A DNA stretch of 40,624 bases, taken from contig JAEPRB010000313.1 in assembly GCA_016758965.1 (NCBI GenBank), positions 1-40,624 on the forward strand. Direction: 5' to 3'. Under the pieces are notes generated by a model. The model ran no database searches. It was not told the origin of the DNA and saw nothing but the letters and a program-made list of their open reading frames with translations. The DNA comes from Circinella minor. Taxonomy: Eukaryota; Mucoromycota; Mucoromycetes; Mucorales; Lichtheimiaceae. Made by a program: the position numbers and the translations under genes. Below are positions 23,204-31,754 of the stretch, piece after piece. Position 1 is the stretch's first letter. Each line of letters opens with the position of its first letter.

Positions 23204-24387
23204 TTACTTGCTATAGTCATATACACCTTTACCACTCTTTCTACCCAATGAACCTTGTTCAACAAGGCTGTTAAGAGTCTTGGATGGTGTTACTAAAGCT
23301 TCTTCAATCTTTCCTTCCTTTGCCCAGCCATCAATAATGAATTTCATAGTATCCAAGCCAACAAACTATTGTTTTTTTTTCTTATTAGTATTTTTTTTCT
23401 TTTTACATCAAAAATATTTCTTTTTTCCTTTCGTATTAAACCCCAATAATAATAATCAACTTACATCAGCAAGTTCCAATGGACCCATTGGCATACCAGC
23501 ACCTAATTTCATAGCAACATCAATATCCTTTGCCTTGGCATCACCACGATCCAAAACACGGAAAGCTTCCATCATATAAGGAACCAATAATCGGTTAACA
23601 ATGAAACTATTATTAAAAAAAATCTGTTATTAATATAATGATAAAAAAACCTTATTTTTTTCTCACTTTTGTTACTGTCAAAATAGAACTTTTTATTAAA
23701 AAAACAAAAAATTTACCCAGGTGTATCCTTGCATTCAACAGGTGTCTTTCCAGTATTCTTTGCAAATGTAGCCAAAGAATCATATACTTCATCCTTAAGT
23801 ACTTCAGTACGAACAACTTCAACCAATTTCATAGCAGGTACAGGGTTAAAGAAATGTAAACCACCAAAACGTTCTCGTCTAGCAGCGGATGTAGCTTCAG
23901 CAATGGATGTGATAGGTAAAGATGAAGTGTTGGAAGTGAAGATGGTATCTGCAGGAGCAGCTTGATCCAATGCTTTGAAAAGAGCTTGTTTAACATCAAT
24001 ATTTTCAACAATAGCTTCAACAACAAGATCTGAACCAGCAACAGCGGCAGGACCGTCAGTAGAAACAGTAATATTTGATAAAGCTTTATCAATAAAAGCT
24101 TGTTGTTCAGCAGCATTTTCTTCACCAAACTTCTTTTTAGCAACACGTTTGATAGATTTAGTGATAATAGCCTGACCGTTCTTTAAAGCAGCATCGGTGG
24201 TATCAACCATGGTTACTTTATAATTGGCTTGAGCAGCAACTTGAACAATGCCAGAACCCATGAGACCAGCACCAATAACAGTAACACTATTAATGTCTTT
24301 AAGATGACGTGCACTGCTTGAAAAAGCTGCTTTACGAATATGTGTTGAAATGGAGGTTCGCAATGTATTAGCAGTGGTGAACAACAT
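23204..24387 (-). CDS. 3-hydroxyacyl-CoA (3-hydroxybutyryl-CoA) dehydrogenase, probably mitochondrial, 3 exons, 324 aa
   Basis: Exons (minus): 24387-23717, 23606-23465, 23365-23204; total 975 nt, phases consistent. The enzyme oxidises L-3-hydroxyacyl-CoA to 3-ketoacyl-CoA with NAD+, the third step of fatty-acid beta-oxidation. The Rossmann domain starts [12 protein letters not shown] (GxGxxG at 39-44). The catalytic dyad is H178 in [10 protein letters not shown] and E190 in MKLVE, with the same 12-residue spacing as in the human enzyme. [10 protein letters not shown] and the C-terminal domain ([46 protein letters not shown]) are also present. The first 30 residues are rich in Arg/Ser/Thr with no acids ([20 protein letters not shown]), a typical mitochondrial presequence. 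There is no peroxisomal C-terminal tripeptide. An upstream open frame extends beyond 24387, but the chosen ATG starts the presequence and is the best fit. Confidence 0.93.
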
Positions 24388-25392
24388 GTTTTGAGACAAG
24401 TGGAAAAGTAACGAAAAAAAAAGGTATGTGGAAGAAAAAAGTAAATAAAAAGAGAAAAAAGTGTATGTGTGTGTGTGTGTGTGAGTATATACAGGGACAA
24501 AATAACAATTGGTGATGAATGCTTTAGCGTTGTTTTTCACATGTTTCTCACACGGAAGAAGAACTTCTATTCGCTTATTAGATACTTTTTTTTTGTACAA
24601 CTTGACATATAATGCCTTTATTTTATGGAAAAATGATCTCGCGATCCCATAAATGTTCAACCACACATCGGAACTTAATTTTTCATGTTTGCCCTGATTT
24701 GATGACTGATGAACTATATAACAAACTACTACAACGGATATTCGCGGAAAGGAAATAAAAAAAACCTTTCAAATTAGTAAGTTAGTTATAGGAATATGTA
24801 TGCTTCAGACTAATAAGCTCCTATATCTACAATTTGAATGTTCAGGAACTATATATTACAAAGGGACACAATGAAATATATATATTTTTTGGAAAAGAAA
24901 ATCTATTGATTCATGACTAAAAGCAGACAAAATTGCAACCATGGAAATGAATTTTATGCATGAATCCTCCATAAATGAAAAAAAAAATTATTTGGAGCCA
25001 CTGATACCCACGAGAGCATAGGACTTTTTGTTGAAAAACAAAAGTCTCAATAAACCTTCCAAATATCCTATAGAGTGGTCGCAATAAGACAATATAACCA
25101 AATTACGGTACATTCAAAGTGGAAGCAGTCAAAGTGAAGTAATATGAATGACCTTTAGTTGAATCTGGGAAATCAATCAATAATGAAAGCAAATTTTACA
25201 AATATTTATTATAAATGATAATTATCTCATTGAGAAATGTATTGTAATTTCTTTTTTAATAATAATTATTTACTTCTGCCCTCCCACTCCCCTTTCTTTT
25301 CTCTTTACACATTTTTTTTATTTCTATAAGAATAGTAAGTTCTACATATTTTATTCATTCAAATTATCCAATAAATAGCCAATATAAATCCA
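24388..25392. other. Intergenic region upstream of transposon A
   Basis: Presumed promoter of the dehydrogenase gene (minus strand), including a (CA)n tract near 24463-24482, then about 700 bp with no recognisable gene up to the transposon target-site duplication. Confidence 0.5.
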
Positions 25393-25400
25393 ATTTTATT
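25393..25400. repeat. Target-site duplication of transposon A, left copy (ATTTTATT)
   Basis: The 8 bp directly left of the terminal inverted repeat are ATTTTATT and are identical to the 8 bp directly right of the opposite end (31117-31124). Two identical 8-mers at exactly the inverted-repeat borders are the expected footprint of transposase-mediated insertion. Confidence 0.85.
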
Positions 25401-25423
25401 GGCGGGGATAACATGAGTGAGGC
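25401..25423 (+). repeat. Left terminal inverted repeat of transposon A
   Basis: 23 bp: GGC, two variable bases, GGATAACATG, two variable bases, TGAGGC. It pairs with 31116-31094 with four mismatches, all in the two variable doublets. Confidence 0.85.
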
Positions 25424-25629
25424 GTGAACTTCCAATAAAAAAAGGTTTTGACGATTTATGTCTGCCAATGAAACTACACTTTGACTACGTGTGTAACAAT
25501 TGAGAAAATAGGTTCAGCTGTATATGTTGATAGCCTTTCTACTCTGGCTTTAAATTAAACATTGAGTTACTGCATAATAAACGTTTCATCTTTGTCAAAA
25601 GACCCTTATTACTAATAATATAACTCAAT

Positions 25630-28600
25630 ATGTTTCCAACAAAAAACCAAACTCAAAAAAAATTATTGCTTCCAAACGAAAAAGGTCCTGGCAGACCAAA
25701 AGGAACTAAGAATTCACCTAATCACAATGCAGGACGTCCAAAAAACAAAAAAACTGGAAGGGGTGACCCTAACCAACTCAACATACAAAACATGCTTCAG
25801 CGTGCCATTAAGCAGCCTACTGCTACAGATCTAGATGAATCAAACGTGGTAATTCAAAATGAATCCCTTGATCAATCTCCCTGTGCAAATGTACAGCAAT
25901 CGAATGTAGAGATTCAAAATGAATCGGAATCTTCTAACACAATACTTCAGGCAACAATTGAGACTGAAGAACGTGTTATCTCACCACCTGTCGAAGAATT
26001 AATGCTACTTAGTCAACTCATGGAAAATAGCAACAAAGAAAACATTGACAGCACTATCCAACTTACGCCGTTACCTGATGAGGATGATAATATATATGAC
26101 CATGAGCCAATTCCCGAGGAGAACGCCAAGGAAGAAGAACAGACCTCAGGTGTGATACAAGACTATTTGCTTGGTCTTCAAAAACGTTTCAGAGAGCAGG
26201 GTACACCAAAGGAGTACAGAGACGGTCACTTTTGGATATATCCCAAAGATCCGTTTTTTGTTTTAATGCACAATCTCGATCCAACCGATTTATACAAACC
26301 ACGGGTTTTTCTTTGGTTTCCCCACATGCTATCTAAAAATCTTATAACGCTTAAATGTCCTATTCACAAGGACGAAAAATTAAAGAACAATGGATATCAA
26401 AAAGATCCATGCACACGTCGAGTTGTTGACCATGATGGGTATGCCTATTTTATAACTTAAAATGTGATTTATTTATTTATTTTTTTGAATATTTACTGAT
26501 TGAAATTATAATAAATAACAATAGTTGTTTTTACATAATGGGCTACCGTTATTATTGTGCCAAGTGTAAAAAGTCATTTGTTAGCCATGATTCAGAAATT
26601 ATCCGCCAATTACCTGAAATGCTTCAATGTGAATACCCTGGCTATATGACCCATCGTAGTGGGCTGTCAAAACCAGTTGGTGATCTTTATCGCTCATGCG
26701 TGCAAAATTCTGTTGGACCTAAGCGTTTCAGCAAAATTCTTAGAGAAATGCACATGTTAAAATATTCAAGACGTCGGCTACAGTATCTTCAAGCTATTTT
26801 TTTTCGACGTAAATATCCAACTTTAGAACAAAAACCTATTGTTTCATTCTCTCAATTTGACGATCGGCTTAAATATGCAGGACATTTGCCATCACCACAG
26901 TACTTACGATCATTTTACACTTCATTTATTGGCGAAATGCGGCACCTTATGGACAAGCAAATGCAAGCCCTTGATGGTATTTATCTTAAGGGTGACCACA
27001 CTTTCAAAATTATTAAGCTTATGAATAAAGCAAATGGGCAGCCTGTTTTTGCTGCACTTTATACTCTATTAAATGAGTACGAAGAAGTGCGTTTACAATA
27101 CCTTGTGCCCAACAAATCCATGGAACATTTACGATATGCTTTTACAGCTATGAGAGATGCATATGAATTGTATGGTTATCAACAGCCTCAGATATTTTTT
27201 ACGGATAATGTAACTGGCGAACAAAACTTCCTCAAGAACATTTTCCCATCACTTTCACAAGGTGTTACTCCAATTACAGAAAAAGAACCATCTCAAATAT
27301 CTGAACCAGAGATTTTTCCAGTTTTGGAATTACCCAAGGACCAAGTCGTTGTCAAATGCATTTATACCTATCAACAAATTGAAGACAGTATCAAGACTTT
27401 TCTCGAACAAGGACAATCGCATATAATTGATGGTAAGGTTGTGTATGATCAAAGAGCAATTGGTTATGACTGTGAATGGCCGGTTGACAGACGTACTGGT
27501 TACCAAGGCAAAGTCGCCACCATACAAATTGCAGATGATCATACTGCTTTGGTATGTTGTGTCAGTCATATTGATCAATTGCCGCCATCGTTGTGTGCAC
27601 TTTTGGAGAGCAAATCTATTATGAAAATTGGTCGTAGTGTTAATCCGGATTTGAACAAGACAAAACGTGATTTCAAAACTCCATGTAATGGTGGATATGA
27701 GCTTGGCAGTTTTTGCAGAAGTCAAGGAGTGATTAAGGATGGGCGAATGAGTTTGAAAAAGATTTGCGAAGCAGTGCTGAATCGCACTTTAAGAAAGGAT
27801 AATGAGGTACGCCTTGGCAATTGGGATGCGGCACGACTTTCTGAAGATCAGATCAATTATGCAGCTCTGGATGCATGGGTGTCATTGAAAATTTTTCAGG
27901 AAGTAAAAAGTCATGGAGTAATAGGAGCAAGTATTTCTAAGCCAATTTGTCCAGGTAATGTTTTAGCTATTTATAATATATACTGTAGTTTATCAAAGGA
28001 ACTGTCACTTACAGTATAATAAAATACTTTCAGAACAAGCTATTTCATACAACCCAGGAGGAAGACTTAGCGATGCTGCGGCTTATGGTGAAATTGCAGA
28101 ACAAACTAGCGATTTGAATGGTCAAGGTTTGAAAAAAAATGAAGCTATTGTAACTGTTAAAAAAGTTTGTATCAAAGGTGCGATGGTAAAAGCTCATAAC
28201 AAATGCTTAAGAGACTTTGGAAAACCCCCATTTAAAATGATTGTCCGCATTAATGAACTTCGTACGTATCGAAAAGTGGAAGTTGATCAAGAAGAACCTA
28301 CAAATAGTATAGAGCAACAGTGTCTATCAGTGCAGACAGAATCGAGCGACAATCACATAAGCACAGCAGAAGATGGTAGGTATTTTATATTTCGAGATAG
28401 AAGATACAAGCTAATATATAAATTTATGTATATTGTATACTAATAAATATTATTATTAAAATACAGAGTGTATATACTCTAACGATGTTAATGACGTTGA
28501 CGAAGAAACAGATGAACTATTAGATAGTACTAATATTGATGGGTATAATAATGAAGATAATGAACTGGTGTCTATGACTGTGGATGAACGAAGCAAAGAA

Positions 28601-30871
28601 TTCGGCCAACAGCAATTTTTGGAGTTGGAAAGAGCAAATAATAATAAGTCACAGTTGGAGCAGAAGCAGAAAGAACCCACCCATTCAAGAATATTAAAAG
28701 ATGTTTTCCACTTAATGGACATTCTAAAAATTTCGCAAAAGCATGGCTTATCCAAAGTTTTCAAAAGGGCTTTTCGAGATACCCTATTTATTATTGATGA
28801 TGGTGACAAGGAACTGGTCAGTAACATTTTGATTAAACAAGGGACAACATGGAATAAAAAACTTGCTGAAAGTCCAGATTGGATATTCCGGAGAGTTCGA
28901 CGTACGTTTCAAACTTAAAATAAGCATGCCTGTATATAGAATCAAATATAATAACACACTTTTCTATTTGTTGTAGGCGTTGTGCCACCCCCAAAAGTAC
29001 TGTATAATGCAGTAAAAGATCTGTTTGAAACATACGGTCCTCTTTTGTGTGCCAGGACAGGTCGTCCATTATTCGATTATGATAATTGGAGACAGGCCAG
29101 AAATATTCTCACTACTATCCATTTAGGTCATGTTTCAGATCCACCAGGTGTTCCTTTTTATTTTTCTATGGGAACTGACAAGGATGGTCTTACTCTCTAT
29201 CGCTGTAGTCGTGGTACAAATTCCTTGGAGGGTGGTATTCACCAGAATCTGATTCGAAGATTTGGATCATTTGGTGCGAGTGTTGAACTTATGGAAGCTG
29301 CATTGGCTGATTATCGTTTAAGACATAATATTGATGTATGTTGTATTATATATTGTATTTAATATATTAATGTGTAAAATAGTATGGAAATGAATTTATT
29401 TATTTTACATTTTTTTACAGGTTGGGACAGCAAACAGATACGGTCGTGTACATATTGGACACTACGACCCATGGATAACCCAGCATATTAATGATTTAGA
29501 AATTTCGCTTGGATTATCTGTTACATATAACGAACCCTTAGTACATCAGCAAGCACTGCAGCTCGTTTCGTCGGGAGAGGAATTTGGTATATCCAGACTA
29601 CCATCGAGTGCAATGAAATCATTTGGAATTAGAGAATCTACATTACCAGAAAAAAATACCATCCATATGTCAACATCATTGAATATTGCGACCTTGCTAA
29701 TGATAAATAGATCAACGTTGCAAACAAAAGGTGCGCAGTATAAATTTATTGCCATGCGACAGAAAGCAGCTCACGCGATTGTACCAGTTCATACCACTGA
29801 AGAAGAAGTTTTATTTAATGAACTATTACTCAAACATTTTTCTGAGCATAAAACAAAAACAATTGATTATACAGAATTTACAAAGATCTGGTCCCAGAAT
29901 GTTGACGGAATTACTATTTTTTACAAAACACTTGAGCATATGCGTAATTATTATCATGCTTGGAAAGAGAAAGATAACATTAGGCAGTCAATCTACAATA
30001 ATAAAGAGGAGATCAATAAAGCGAGAGATGCTATTTACTCCCCAATACGAAAACGATCAGCTCCATCCCCAAAACAACCAACACCAACCAAACATATTCG
30101 GGTAGAACAAAGCGTTCAAATACCAGTCCCGTTAGCATCAGCAATATCATATCCGTCATCTCAACTACCACCATCCCTATCTGAAAAAGCACCTATACCG
30201 ATATCATCTGCACCATCTGCTCCTCGTATTATTTCTCAACCAGTTAACATTGCTTTAAGAAACAACATACATTATAATTTGGTTCCTTTGCACATACAGT
30301 CAATACATAATAATACAGGTAATCATAAAAATCTCTACTATTGGACATGGTAGCTTGGTTTTATCTTGTATCATTATTTTAAAATGTTTGTTGGTTAACA
30401 CAAATGGGATGCTTCATATACATGGGAGTGACATGACATCAGTTGCAGACACCAACAATAATATATGAACAATAATATATGAACATTACTATAGAAGGAT
30501 TAGTACAACCACCATCCATACAAGCTCATCCTCCGCAAATGTATTCTCATCAGCAAATATACCAACAAGTTCATTTACAACGTTCTTATCCACAACAAAA
30601 TTATTCACAATATCAATACACCTATCCGCAGCAGCAAATTTATTCACAACAACATCTTCCTCAACTACACCCTCCTCAACAATTTTCTCCTTCTATTCAG
30701 CAACAGATTATTCCGATCAATAATAATATCACTGGTACTAGTAATACAAATTTAAAAGCCGGTTTGCCTAAATATCGTCAAAAATCAGCATGCTCCTTGT
30801 GTGGCTATACTAACTGCAATGGCAAATACAATCGTCGGTTATGCAAAAACGTTGATAATAACCAGTCATAA
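25630..30871 (+). CDS. Transposase-like protein: AT-hooks, DUF6729-like Zn domain, DDE core with embedded DEDDy exonuclease, 1549 aa
   Basis: Exons: 25630-26438, 26525-27954, 28034-28375, 28467-28901, 28977-29335, 29421-30318, 30495-30871; total 4650 nt, all phases close and there is no internal stop. In order: two GRP AT-hook cores (21-23 and 35-37, KGPGRPKGTKN); an acidic linker; a DUF6729-like metal-binding domain (C243, H246, C281, C284; CTRRVVD, GYRYYCAKCKKSF); an RNase-H-like core with D427 in LKGDHTFKI and D497 in IFFTDN; a complete 3'-5' exonuclease (D585/E587 in IGYDCEW, D645 in NPDLNK, Y715 and D719 in YAALDAW, the DEDDy pattern of WRN/RNase D); an acidic/Gln-rich linker; then E1090 in RGTNSLEGGIHQ, the likely third DDE residue. 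The tail has KFIAMRQKAAHAIVPVHT, a Pro/Gln-rich region and a knuckle C1524-x2-C-x4-C-x8-C1541. The predicted role is DNA cut-and-paste with end trimming; this is inference. The last intron is the least certain; without it the protein would end near residue 1435. Confidence 0.8.
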
Positions 30872-31029
30872 ATATATAAAGCACTTCTATATTACATCAC
30901 GTATACTCTATTTATAGTTTTATAAATTTATATTCTCAATTACTTTGTTATACTTTTTTATGAATAAATACATTTCTCATTATTTTATATAAAAAAATAT
31001 GTTTTGCAATAAGTCGCAAGTATAAATTG

Positions 31030-31064
31030 AAAAAGTACCCTGAAGCTTCGCTTCAGGGTACTTT
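31030..31064. repeat. Perfect 16-bp-stem hairpin near the right end of transposon A
   Basis: AAAAGTACCCTGAAGC is followed by the 3-base loop TTC and then its exact reverse complement. It lies between the transposase stop and the right terminal repeat, 51 bp from the element end. No matching copy was seen in the left end. It may be a transcription or 3'-end processing signal, a cruciform recognised by the transposase, or a small foldback insertion. Confidence 0.85.
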
Positions 31065-31093
31065 TCCAAAAAATTAATTAATTAATTCCCTCA

Positions 31094-31116
31094 GCCTCAG
31101 ACATGTTATCCGAGCC
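31094..31116 (-). repeat. Right terminal inverted repeat of transposon A
   Basis: Read on the minus strand: GGCTCGGATAACATGTC then TGAGGC. It pairs with 25401-25423 at 19 of 23 positions. Confidence 0.85.
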
Positions 31117-31124
31117 ATTTTATT
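31117..31124. repeat. Target-site duplication of transposon A, right copy (ATTTTATT)
   Basis: Identical to 25393-25400 and abuts the right terminal repeat with no gap. Confidence 0.85.
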
Positions 31125-31754
31125 TTGACCTACATCAATATACTCAACCCTCTTACCACTGTGACCTCAAACTTGGAGTTAGAAGGCAAGGATCAACTTA
31201 AAGAACAGATTTTTGTTCGTTCGACGCATACTTCTTTCCCTTGATGGATATTTAGCCCTACTACCAAGTGGACCTTTGGGTCTCTTTTTCAGTAACCAAG
31301 AGAAGGTAGAGCGATTTGTAACTCTTATGTTCAGATGTGTTTAGTTTAAACAATTGATCAAGCTCTTTAATTGTCTTTATATGATGAGTCGTGTGTTCTT
31401 CCTAGTTGTTGTCTTCTTGGTCGATGGTAAGTTGTAGATTTTTCTGTGAAACTATAAAAATATGTATGTAAATTAATTAATAATAAAAAATTTACACTTT
31501 TATATTTAATTCTAAAAAATAATATGAAATGCTCTGTTTAATTGTATATCCTCTCATCTGTATATGTGATATGATTATACTTGTATCACATTAATAAAAA
31601 CAACAGATATATATATGGTATGTTTTACTATTGATAATATAGAAGGTGACAAGTTCCACTTGTTGTGAAAACAAACAATTTGGAAATCCTAGGGTTGCAA
31701 ATTCAGGGGCTTAACTATAGTTGGCTAAAAATAATAATTTAATAAACTAAAGTT
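31125..31754. other. Spacer between the two transposons, no gene seen
   Basis: About 630 bp of unassigned sequence. The part near 31152-31180 matches, in inverted orientation, a segment near 18926-18956 (CCAAGTTTGAGGT followed by CAC, one base, GTGGTA), suggesting a dispersed repeat. No open frame with recognisable motifs. Confidence 0.45.

What the first reader, a model, noticed from the sequence alone, without database searches (positions are those of the whole stretch)
25630..30871. Transposase-like protein with a complete DEDDy 3'-5' exonuclease embedded between DDE catalytic residues
Seen directly: D427 (KGDHTFK) and D497 (FFTDN) are followed by D585/E587, D645 and Y715/D719 in the exact arrangement of WRN/RNase D exonucleases, and only at residue 1090 does a candidate catalytic Glu appear in TNSLEGGIHQ. 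All motif residues of both putative active sites are present and the reading frame is open across 7 exons. Known knowledge: insertion domains between the second Asp and the Glu occur in hAT, MULE and KDZ-like transposases, and WRN-type exonucleases process DNA ends. Inference: a self-contained cut-and-trim enzyme, with the exonuclease resecting ends, limiting footprints or degrading competing DNA. I know of no standard superfamily defined by this fusion.
Basis: partly seen in the sequence, partly recalled or inferred. Interest (0 to 1): 0.88.

Follow-up and report, generated by a model that had tools for sequence, protein, structure and literature searches.

The report
Exonuclease-bearing Dada-like fungal DNA transposon
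This stretch of a mould genome is a jumping gene whose moving enzyme carries a DNA-trimming enzyme inside it; such a fusion was described in 2013, but here the jumping gene has different ends and insertion sites, and some relatives keep the inserted part after its catalytic residues have changed.

Summary
A seven-exon, 1549-aa gene (25630-30871) has a complete WRN-type DEDDy exonuclease (residues 578-730) between D497 and E1090 of a DDE-type transposase. It sits in a DNA transposon at 25401-31116 (5716 bp) with 23-bp imperfect terminal inverted repeats (19/23), an 8-bp target duplication (ATTTTATT), a paralogous empty site, a decayed sister copy and short elements with similar ends. The host is very probably Circinella minor (Mucorales).

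The fusion is not new: Kojima & Jurka 2013 (PMC3706591) reported it in Dada transposons of Laccaria and Ectocarpus. Domain order and spacings match. Three published Dada features do not: this element has terminal repeats, 8-bp rather than 6-7-bp duplications, and varied AT-rich targets rather than small-RNA genes. I call it Dada-like, a new variant of a known kind.

Not found in eight literature searches: a clade of 14 Mycena proteins with at least three of four exonuclease ligands changed but no substitution seen at D/D/E. The domain stays about as conserved as in a matched intact-exonuclease set, though Pfam recognises it in only 7 of 14. A non-catalytic role is thus plausible. Whether it trims DNA here is untested.

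The parts
25401..31116 (+). complete DNA transposon, 5716 bp
   Evidence: ends, target duplication and empty site; C2 copy 97.96% identical over 5700 ungapped positions
25393..25400 (.). left copy of the 8-bp target duplication ATTTTATT
   Evidence: single copy in the paralogous empty site L065
31117..31124 (.). right copy of the 8-bp target duplication ATTTTATT
25401..25423 (+). left terminal inverted repeat
   Evidence: 19 of 23 identical to the right end; found genome-wide
31094..31116 (-). right terminal inverted repeat
25630..30871 (+). transposase gene; exons 25630-26438, 26525-27954, 28034-28375, 28467-28901, 28977-29335, 29421-30318, 30495-30871 (acceptors of exons 3 and 7 uncertain)
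   Evidence: predicted from sequence, no expression data
26227..26918 (+). DUF6729 domain (residues 200-401, across intron 1) with the N-terminal zinc-finger-like motif C243/H246/C281/C284
   Evidence: Pfam PF20499 E=8e-19; column counts
26994..26996 (+). first catalytic Asp, D427 (KGDHTFK)
   Evidence: D in 87 of 104 rows, 1 other, 16 gaps
27204..27206 (+). second catalytic Asp, D497 (FFTDN)
   Evidence: D in 89 of 104 rows, 2 other, 13 gaps
27447..27905 (+). embedded DEDDy 3'-5' exonuclease (residues 578-730)
28700..28711 (+). DxxH motif, D939-H942 (DVFH)
   Evidence: D in 74 and H in 73 of 104 rows, 2 other each, the rest gaps
29228..29230 (+). catalytic Glu, E1090 (TNSLEGG)
   Evidence: E in 67 of 104 rows, 4 other, 33 gaps
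30791..30844 (+). C-terminal zinc-finger-like motif C-x2-C-x4-C-x8-C
   Evidence: read in the translation and aligned relatives
31027..31069 (.). subterminal palindrome near the 3' end
   Evidence: self-match of the 3' end on the opposite strand, 88% over 43 bases

Best explanation
The locus is a cut-and-paste DNA transposon with an open transposase gene, very probably from Circinella minor, whose transposase belongs to the exonuclease-bearing Dada-type lineage. Shown: transposase gene model, terminal inverted repeats, 8-bp AT-rich target duplications, empty site, decayed sister copy, and short elements with similar ends. Inferred: the zinc fingers and N-terminal basic, AT-hook-like motifs bind DNA; D427, D497 and E1090 form one RNase H active site that cuts at the GGC termini and joins the ends across an 8-nt stagger. 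The WRN-like exonuclease lies between the helix after the second Asp and the strand before DxxH, so it should sit near the active site. My preferred reading: it is a DNA-end-binding part of the complex that, where the catalytic residues are intact as here, also removes 3' nucleotides at the donor break or up to a fixed protein footprint. It does not freely chew the ends that integrate.
For: Ends, duplication and empty site. Terminal-repeat pattern, made from these ends: 79 genomic sites against 0 for the reversed-pattern control. 5 of 14 elements have exact 8-bp duplications and 2 more match 7 of 8; own pairs average 6.07 matches of 8, 182 cross pairs average 3.11 with none at 8. A second subfamily, C465, has 20/23 end identity and a 7/8 duplication. 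Model of relative P0032, pLDDT 86.9, pTM 0.79: D301 in a strand, D371 directly after the fourth strand, D785-H788 after a short strand, E938 in a later helix. A MULE ORF of the same genome shows TDN...IFP...CxxH (L088), like TDN...IFP-[exonuclease]-DxxH here. Spacings agree with published Dada-U6_DR numbers: Asp-Asp 70 vs 68; last zinc ligand to first Asp 143 vs 135 (paper passages). Exonuclease place as in Dada of Laccaria and Ectocarpus. Mycena clade with changed ligands and matched domain conservation.
Against: The published Dada description (passages) has no terminal inverted repeats (Dada-U6, Dada-U1), 6-7-bp duplications and insertion in small-RNA genes; none of these holds here. No direct comparison with a named Dada protein was possible. 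Similarity to MULE is weak: below the Pfam cut-off here, seen in 1 of 23 members of A1 (E 0.14) and 1 of 5 of A3 (E 0.0019); profile comparison with one MULE protein gave probability about 1% and put the first Asp out of register. D-D-E distances were not measured. 7 of 14 elements match at 6 or fewer of 8 target bases, and C9 fits 7 bp with one mismatch better than 8. C167 fits 9 bp; C42 has a paired end (19/23) but 4 mismatches in the duplication; C338 gave no paired end. The C118 pair was left out of the count because its flanks are an inverted repeat. The right side of the empty-site match is only 27 bp. Pfam's exonuclease match is kept in only 7 of the 14 Mycena proteins. No expression data.
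Confidence: 0.82

Rival explanations
1. Cut-and-trim: the exonuclease activity itself is needed for transposition and processes the cleaved 3' ends (the first reader; Kojima & Jurka 2013 also suggest end processing).
For: All four acidic ligands and the Tyr are intact here; all four ligands are intact in 54 of 72 rows with those positions readable; in this genome 15 of 18 contigs with all five positions readable have all intact.
Against: 14 Mycena proteins in one clade have 3 or 4 of 4 ligands changed with no substitution seen at D/D/E; the GGC ends and the recurring 8-bp size show no variable trimming.
Confidence: 0.35
2. The exonuclease is mainly a structural or DNA-binding insertion domain, and catalysis is a dispensable relic.
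For: At core identity 0.60-0.75 the exonuclease/core identity ratio is 0.805 (63 pairs) in the Mycena clade and 0.803 (118 pairs) in the intact Agaricomycete set.
Against: Ligands persist in 54 of 72 readable rows, which a pure relic would not predict. Over all pairs the ratio is lower in the changed clade (0.816, 75 pairs, against 0.876, 325 pairs, at different core identities), and Pfam recognises the domain in only 7 of 14. Pairs are not independent.
Confidence: 0.35
3. It is a separate superfamily, not Dada, that acquired a similar exonuclease.
For: Terminal repeats, duplication length and targets differ from published Dada (paper passages).
Against: Same domain order, residue spacing and exonuclease place as published for Dada.
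Confidence: 0.15
4. A domesticated host gene or gene-model artefact, no longer mobile.
For: No expression or mobility data; only one other near full-length close copy was found in the capped genome search, and it is decayed.
Against: Ends, exact duplication, empty site, 97.96% identical sister copy elsewhere.
Confidence: 0.04

Closest known systems
Dada transposons of Laccaria bicolor and Ectocarpus siliculosus (Dada-1_LB, Dada-2_LB, Dada-1_ES; Kojima & Jurka 2013, PMC3706591, passages read)
   Same: DDE transposase with a DEDDy exonuclease between the second D and DxxH; introns; similar element size (the Dada-2_LB entry spans 5652 bp)
   Different: their ends and targets are not given in the passages I read, so the difference in ends cannot be judged against these members
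Dada-U6, Dada-U1 and tRNA-targeting Dada (same paper, passages)
   Same: DDE residue spacing and DxxH; similar layout of the N-terminal zinc finger
   Different: no exonuclease mentioned for them in the passages read; Dada-U6 and Dada-U1 lack terminal inverted repeats; 6-7-bp duplications; insertion into small-RNA genes
MuDR/MULE and hAT transposases
   Same: C/DxxH motif after the second Asp; hAT makes duplications of about 8 bp (both stated in PMC3706591 passages)
   Different: no embedded exonuclease known to me (recalled); sequence similarity very weak
WRN exonuclease domain
   Same: fold and all catalytic residues; 30% identity in the aligned model of relative P0032
   Different: in WRN it is joined to a helicase, not to a transposase

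Membership tests
Dada superfamily (as in PMC3706591) | catalytic D, D, E with a DxxH motif after the second D | tested here: met
   D427, D497, D939-H942, E1090 conserved; Asp-Asp spacing 70 vs 68 published
Dada superfamily (as in PMC3706591) | N-terminal CCCC zinc finger | tested here: inconclusive
   C243-x2-H246-x34-C281-x2-C284: spacing agrees, but the second ligand is His here. Columns over 84 rows: first C in 24 (29 gaps, 31 other letters), second C in 55 (28 gaps, His here), third C in 66 (18 gaps), fourth C in 64 (17 gaps, 3 other)
Dada superfamily (as in PMC3706591) | C-terminal CCHC zinc finger | tested here: inconclusive
   C-x2-C-x4-C-x8-C here; last spacing agrees with H1372-x8-C1381, third ligand is Cys; many aligned relatives lack or truncate this end
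Dada superfamily (as in PMC3706591) | 6-7-bp target duplication | tested here: not met
   8 bp exact in 5 of 14 elements; 0 of 14 exact at 6, 7, 9 or 10 bp, C9 fits 7 bp with one mismatch
Dada superfamily (as in PMC3706591) | no terminal inverted repeats (stated for Dada-U6 and Dada-U1) | tested here: not met
   23-bp repeats, 19 identical; 79 pattern sites genome-wide, 0 in the control
Dada superfamily (as in PMC3706591) | insertion into specific small-RNA genes | tested here: not met
   The uninterrupted empty site L065 has no Rfam match, nor do the other 17 loci scanned (the 11 short elements had only 50-bp flanks) or the window. The five exact duplications differ from one another. Nearest listed tRNA or U6 gene to a terminal-repeat site is 8.8 kb away; the tRNA list is a lower bound (63 of 1938 candidates scored)
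Dada superfamily (as in PMC3706591) | sequence clusters with named Dada transposases | not testable with these tools
exonuclease-bearing Dada subgroup (Laccaria, Ectocarpus) | DEDDy exonuclease between the second D and DxxH with all four catalytic residues | tested here: met
DEDDy exonuclease (DNA_pol_A_exo1) | DEDD ligands plus Tyr, WRN/RNase D fold | tested here: met
   fold in relative P0032
MULE transposase (PF10551) | Pfam match over the curated cut-off | tested here: not met
   17.4 bits, cut-off 27.6

The most novel reading that the evidence does not exclude
The exonuclease-bearing branch is a distinct fungal transposon lineage that uses ordinary terminal repeats and AT-rich targets. 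In it a captured WRN-type exonuclease became a built-in end-binding part of the transposase, which in a Mycena sublineage persists as a catalytically dead pseudo-exonuclease while the elements kept spreading.
Probability: 0.33. Interest if true: 0.6.

Novelty: new variant of a known kind. Interest (0 to 1): 0.42.

Why it matters
Transposases with a built-in exonuclease offer a way to ask whether end trimming can be part of transposition itself. Nature has supplied a control: related proteins with intact and with changed exonuclease ligands. The element also suggests that terminal repeats, 8-bp duplications and non-RNA targets occur among Dada-like transposons, which would widen the description of that superfamily.

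Tried and rejected
Direct comparison with named Dada proteins: three homologue searches (candidate lists capped in 28 and 45) returned proteins named from fungi, unnamed environmental proteins, one EukProt protein, and eight hits covering only the exonuclease (8-20% of the query; among them a snake WRN). None was named Dada, and I could identify no animal Dada. The last search used an alignment with the exonuclease cut out, to reach exonuclease-free relatives.

Profile comparison with MULE: my script found a usable ORF in one of five MULE loci, so the MULE side was a single sequence; probability 1.1% and 0.6%, E 0.05 and 0.09, first Asp out of register. I use only the visible motif order.

First structure model (relative P0010, 23 sequences) had pLDDT 62 and low confidence over the RNase H part; a second with 87 sequences (P0032) was used instead. 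The PDB comparisons were filled by the exonuclease, so the transposase core was not tested against solved folds; no transposase appeared in the 50 rows shown of each. Sequence search of solved structures with the exonuclease-free profile found nothing up to E=1.

Domesticated host gene: thought unlikely because of ends, duplication and empty site. Chance resemblance to an exonuclease: rejected (E=5e-18). Selection from codon differences between the window copy and the C2 copy was not pursued, because C2 has five stops and a 444-bp insertion.

Papers seen: PMC3706591 passages; PMC4482050, PMC12477816 and PMC10799480 one passage each; all others only as search listings.

Full report
WHAT WAS CHECKED. 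The gene at 25630-30871 splices with GT-AG introns into an open 1549-aa protein. Pfam finds DUF6729 at residues 200-401 (E=8e-19), DNA_pol_A_exo1 at 578-730 (E=5e-18) and a sub-threshold MULE match at 462-515 (E=0.006). The exonuclease is nearest to WRN by sequence. Two acceptor sites are ambiguous, at exons 3 and 7.

THE ELEMENT. A DNA search of the window's own genome (46.6 Mb, 619 contigs; 40 of 50 candidates scored) showed that similarity to the closest copies begins at about 25394-25401 and stops near 31117. The ends are GGCGGGGATAACATGAGTGAGGC and, reversed, GGCTCGGATAACATGTCTGAGGC, 19 of 23 identical, flanked by ATTTTATT on both sides. Locus L065 on contig C85 is a paralogous empty site: joining the flanks minus one ATTTTATT gives a continuous 179-column alignment (141 identical, 26 gap columns); on the right side only 27 bp support it, at 89% identity. 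A sister copy on C2 is 97.96% identical over 5700 ungapped positions with its own exact duplication AGGATTTG; it is decayed, with five in-frame stops and a 444-bp insertion. C9 holds an internally deleted copy.

PARTNERS AND TARGETS. The terminal-repeat pattern with up to 3 mismatches occurs 79 times (43+36) and its reversed control 0 times. From the list I picked 12 pairs of facing ends and fetched them: 11 short elements of 799-989 bp, and the C118 pair, which I left out because its flanks form an inverted repeat and not a direct one. Over 14 elements (these 11 plus window, C2, C9) the 8 bases on the two sides agree exactly in 5, at 7 of 8 in 2, and at 6 or fewer in 7; C9 fits 7 bp with one mismatch. 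Own pairs average 6.07 matches, the 182 cross pairs 3.11 with none at 8. The five exact duplications are five different sequences. The left-side 8-mers are 81% A+T against 68% in the window. Of other autonomous subfamilies, C465 has 20/23 end identity and a 7/8 duplication; C167 fits 9 bp; C42 has a paired end (19/23) but a duplication with 4 mismatches; C338 gave no paired end. No Rfam family is matched in the window or in 18 fetched loci, the empty site included (the 11 short elements had only 50-bp flanks, so a split RNA gene there could be missed). tRNA and U6 genes are detectable in this genome; on the five contigs that also carry a terminal-repeat site the nearest is 8.8 kb away. The tRNA list is a lower bound.

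HOST. Protein P0004 of Circinella minor comes from a contig of 36462 bases, the length of contig C330, and aligns to C330 locus L026 in five pieces at 98-100% identity. The window is therefore very probably C. minor (Mucorales, Lichtheimiaceae).

CONSERVATION. Over 104 aligned rows (the window protein and 103 hits; eight hits matching only the exonuclease, P0084-P0091, were dropped before counting), D427 is D in 87 (1 other, 16 gaps), D497 in 89 (2 other, 13 gaps) and E1090 in 67 (4 other, 33 gaps). Of 72 rows with all four acidic exonuclease positions readable, 54 are intact, 16 have two or more changed, and 2 have one changed. Of the 54 intact rows, 37 show all of D, D, DxxH and E, 2 have another letter at E, 1 has Y for the H of DxxH, and the rest have gaps. 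On a quick tree built without the exonuclease columns (SH-aLRT only, some long branches), 14 of the 16 form one clade with support 100, all named Mycena; the other two, P0024 and P0073, lie outside it. In these 14, three or four of the four ligands are changed; D/D/E are all three seen and intact in 10, the other 4 have gaps and no substitution. One (P0020) has H for the D of DxxH. M. filopes has both kinds (P0016, P0020, P0026 changed; P0038 intact).

At core identity 0.60-0.75 the exonuclease/core identity ratio is 0.805 in the changed clade (63 pairs), 0.803 in the intact Agaricomycete set (118 pairs, 26 rows chosen) and 0.692 in Mucorales (15 pairs, 12 rows chosen). Over all pairs it is 0.816 (75), 0.876 (325) and 0.772 (66), at different mean core identities. 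Pairs are not independent. Against a fully kept fold, the precomputed Pfam exonuclease match is present in 7 of the 14. In this genome, letters could be read for 28 contigs; 15 of the 18 with all five exonuclease positions readable have all five intact; one contig (C521) has N for D497 (several loci per contig may be merged, and not every exonuclease match was fetched).

COMPARISON WITH WHAT IS KNOWN. Kojima & Jurka 2013 (PMC3706591; passages) describe Dada by a DDE transposase with DxxH, zinc fingers and (outside Perkinsus) introns, 6-7-bp duplications and insertion in small-RNA genes; Dada-U6 and Dada-U1 lack terminal inverted repeats. [quoted passage not shown] The present protein matches in order and spacing: Asp-Asp 70 vs 68; last N-terminal zinc ligand to first Asp 143 vs 135. 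It fails three published features: duplication length, lack of terminal repeats, targets; its zinc fingers agree in spacing but not in every ligand. I therefore call it Dada-like and do not file it as a strict member. Where the passages name the families behind those three features, none is an exonuclease-bearing one, and for the exonuclease-bearing ones I read nothing about ends, so this may simply be how that branch behaves.

MECHANISM. Shown: ends, duplication size, empty site, conserved D/D/E and DxxH, embedded exonuclease. Inferred: cut-and-paste with an 8-nt stagger; the exonuclease close to the active site. Because the GGC termini and the 8-bp size recur, the exonuclease cannot freely shorten the integrating ends; it may act on the donor break or trim to a protein footprint. 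The Mycena clade argues that the domain can be useful without catalysis. I hold a dual role (end binding everywhere, trimming where intact) as most likely, with the purely catalytic and purely structural readings close behind.

Noticed in passing
window 31138-31701: The right flank of the element is itself repeated DNA (copies on C356, C2, C196, C30 at about 71-76% identity); nature unknown.
   Followed up: partly
window 31027-31069: An imperfect palindrome (88% self-match) sits inside the 3' end of the element and recurs in other copies; possible protein-binding or hairpin site.
   Followed up: no
L069-L079: Short 799-989 bp elements with unequal ends (GGCACGGCTAAAGTGAATGAGGC and GGCCCGGATA[A/C]CATGTATGAGGC type) recur; which transposase moves them is not known.
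   Followed up: partly
proteins P0020, P0021 (Mycena): Predicted proteins join an HSP70 domain to this transposase; gene-model error or real fusion.
   Followed up: no
protein P0023 (Mucor saturninus): Predicted protein carries both this exonuclease and a DDE_3 domain, which suggests a nested or neighbouring second transposon.
   Followed up: no
model of P0032, residues about 616-702: A strand-rich region directly after the exonuclease; the matching part of the window protein has no Pfam match, and the fold was not tested.
   Followed up: no
window 23713-24768 (-): ORF that by eye looks like a 3-hydroxyacyl-CoA dehydrogenase, a probable host gene beside the element; not tested.
   Followed up: no
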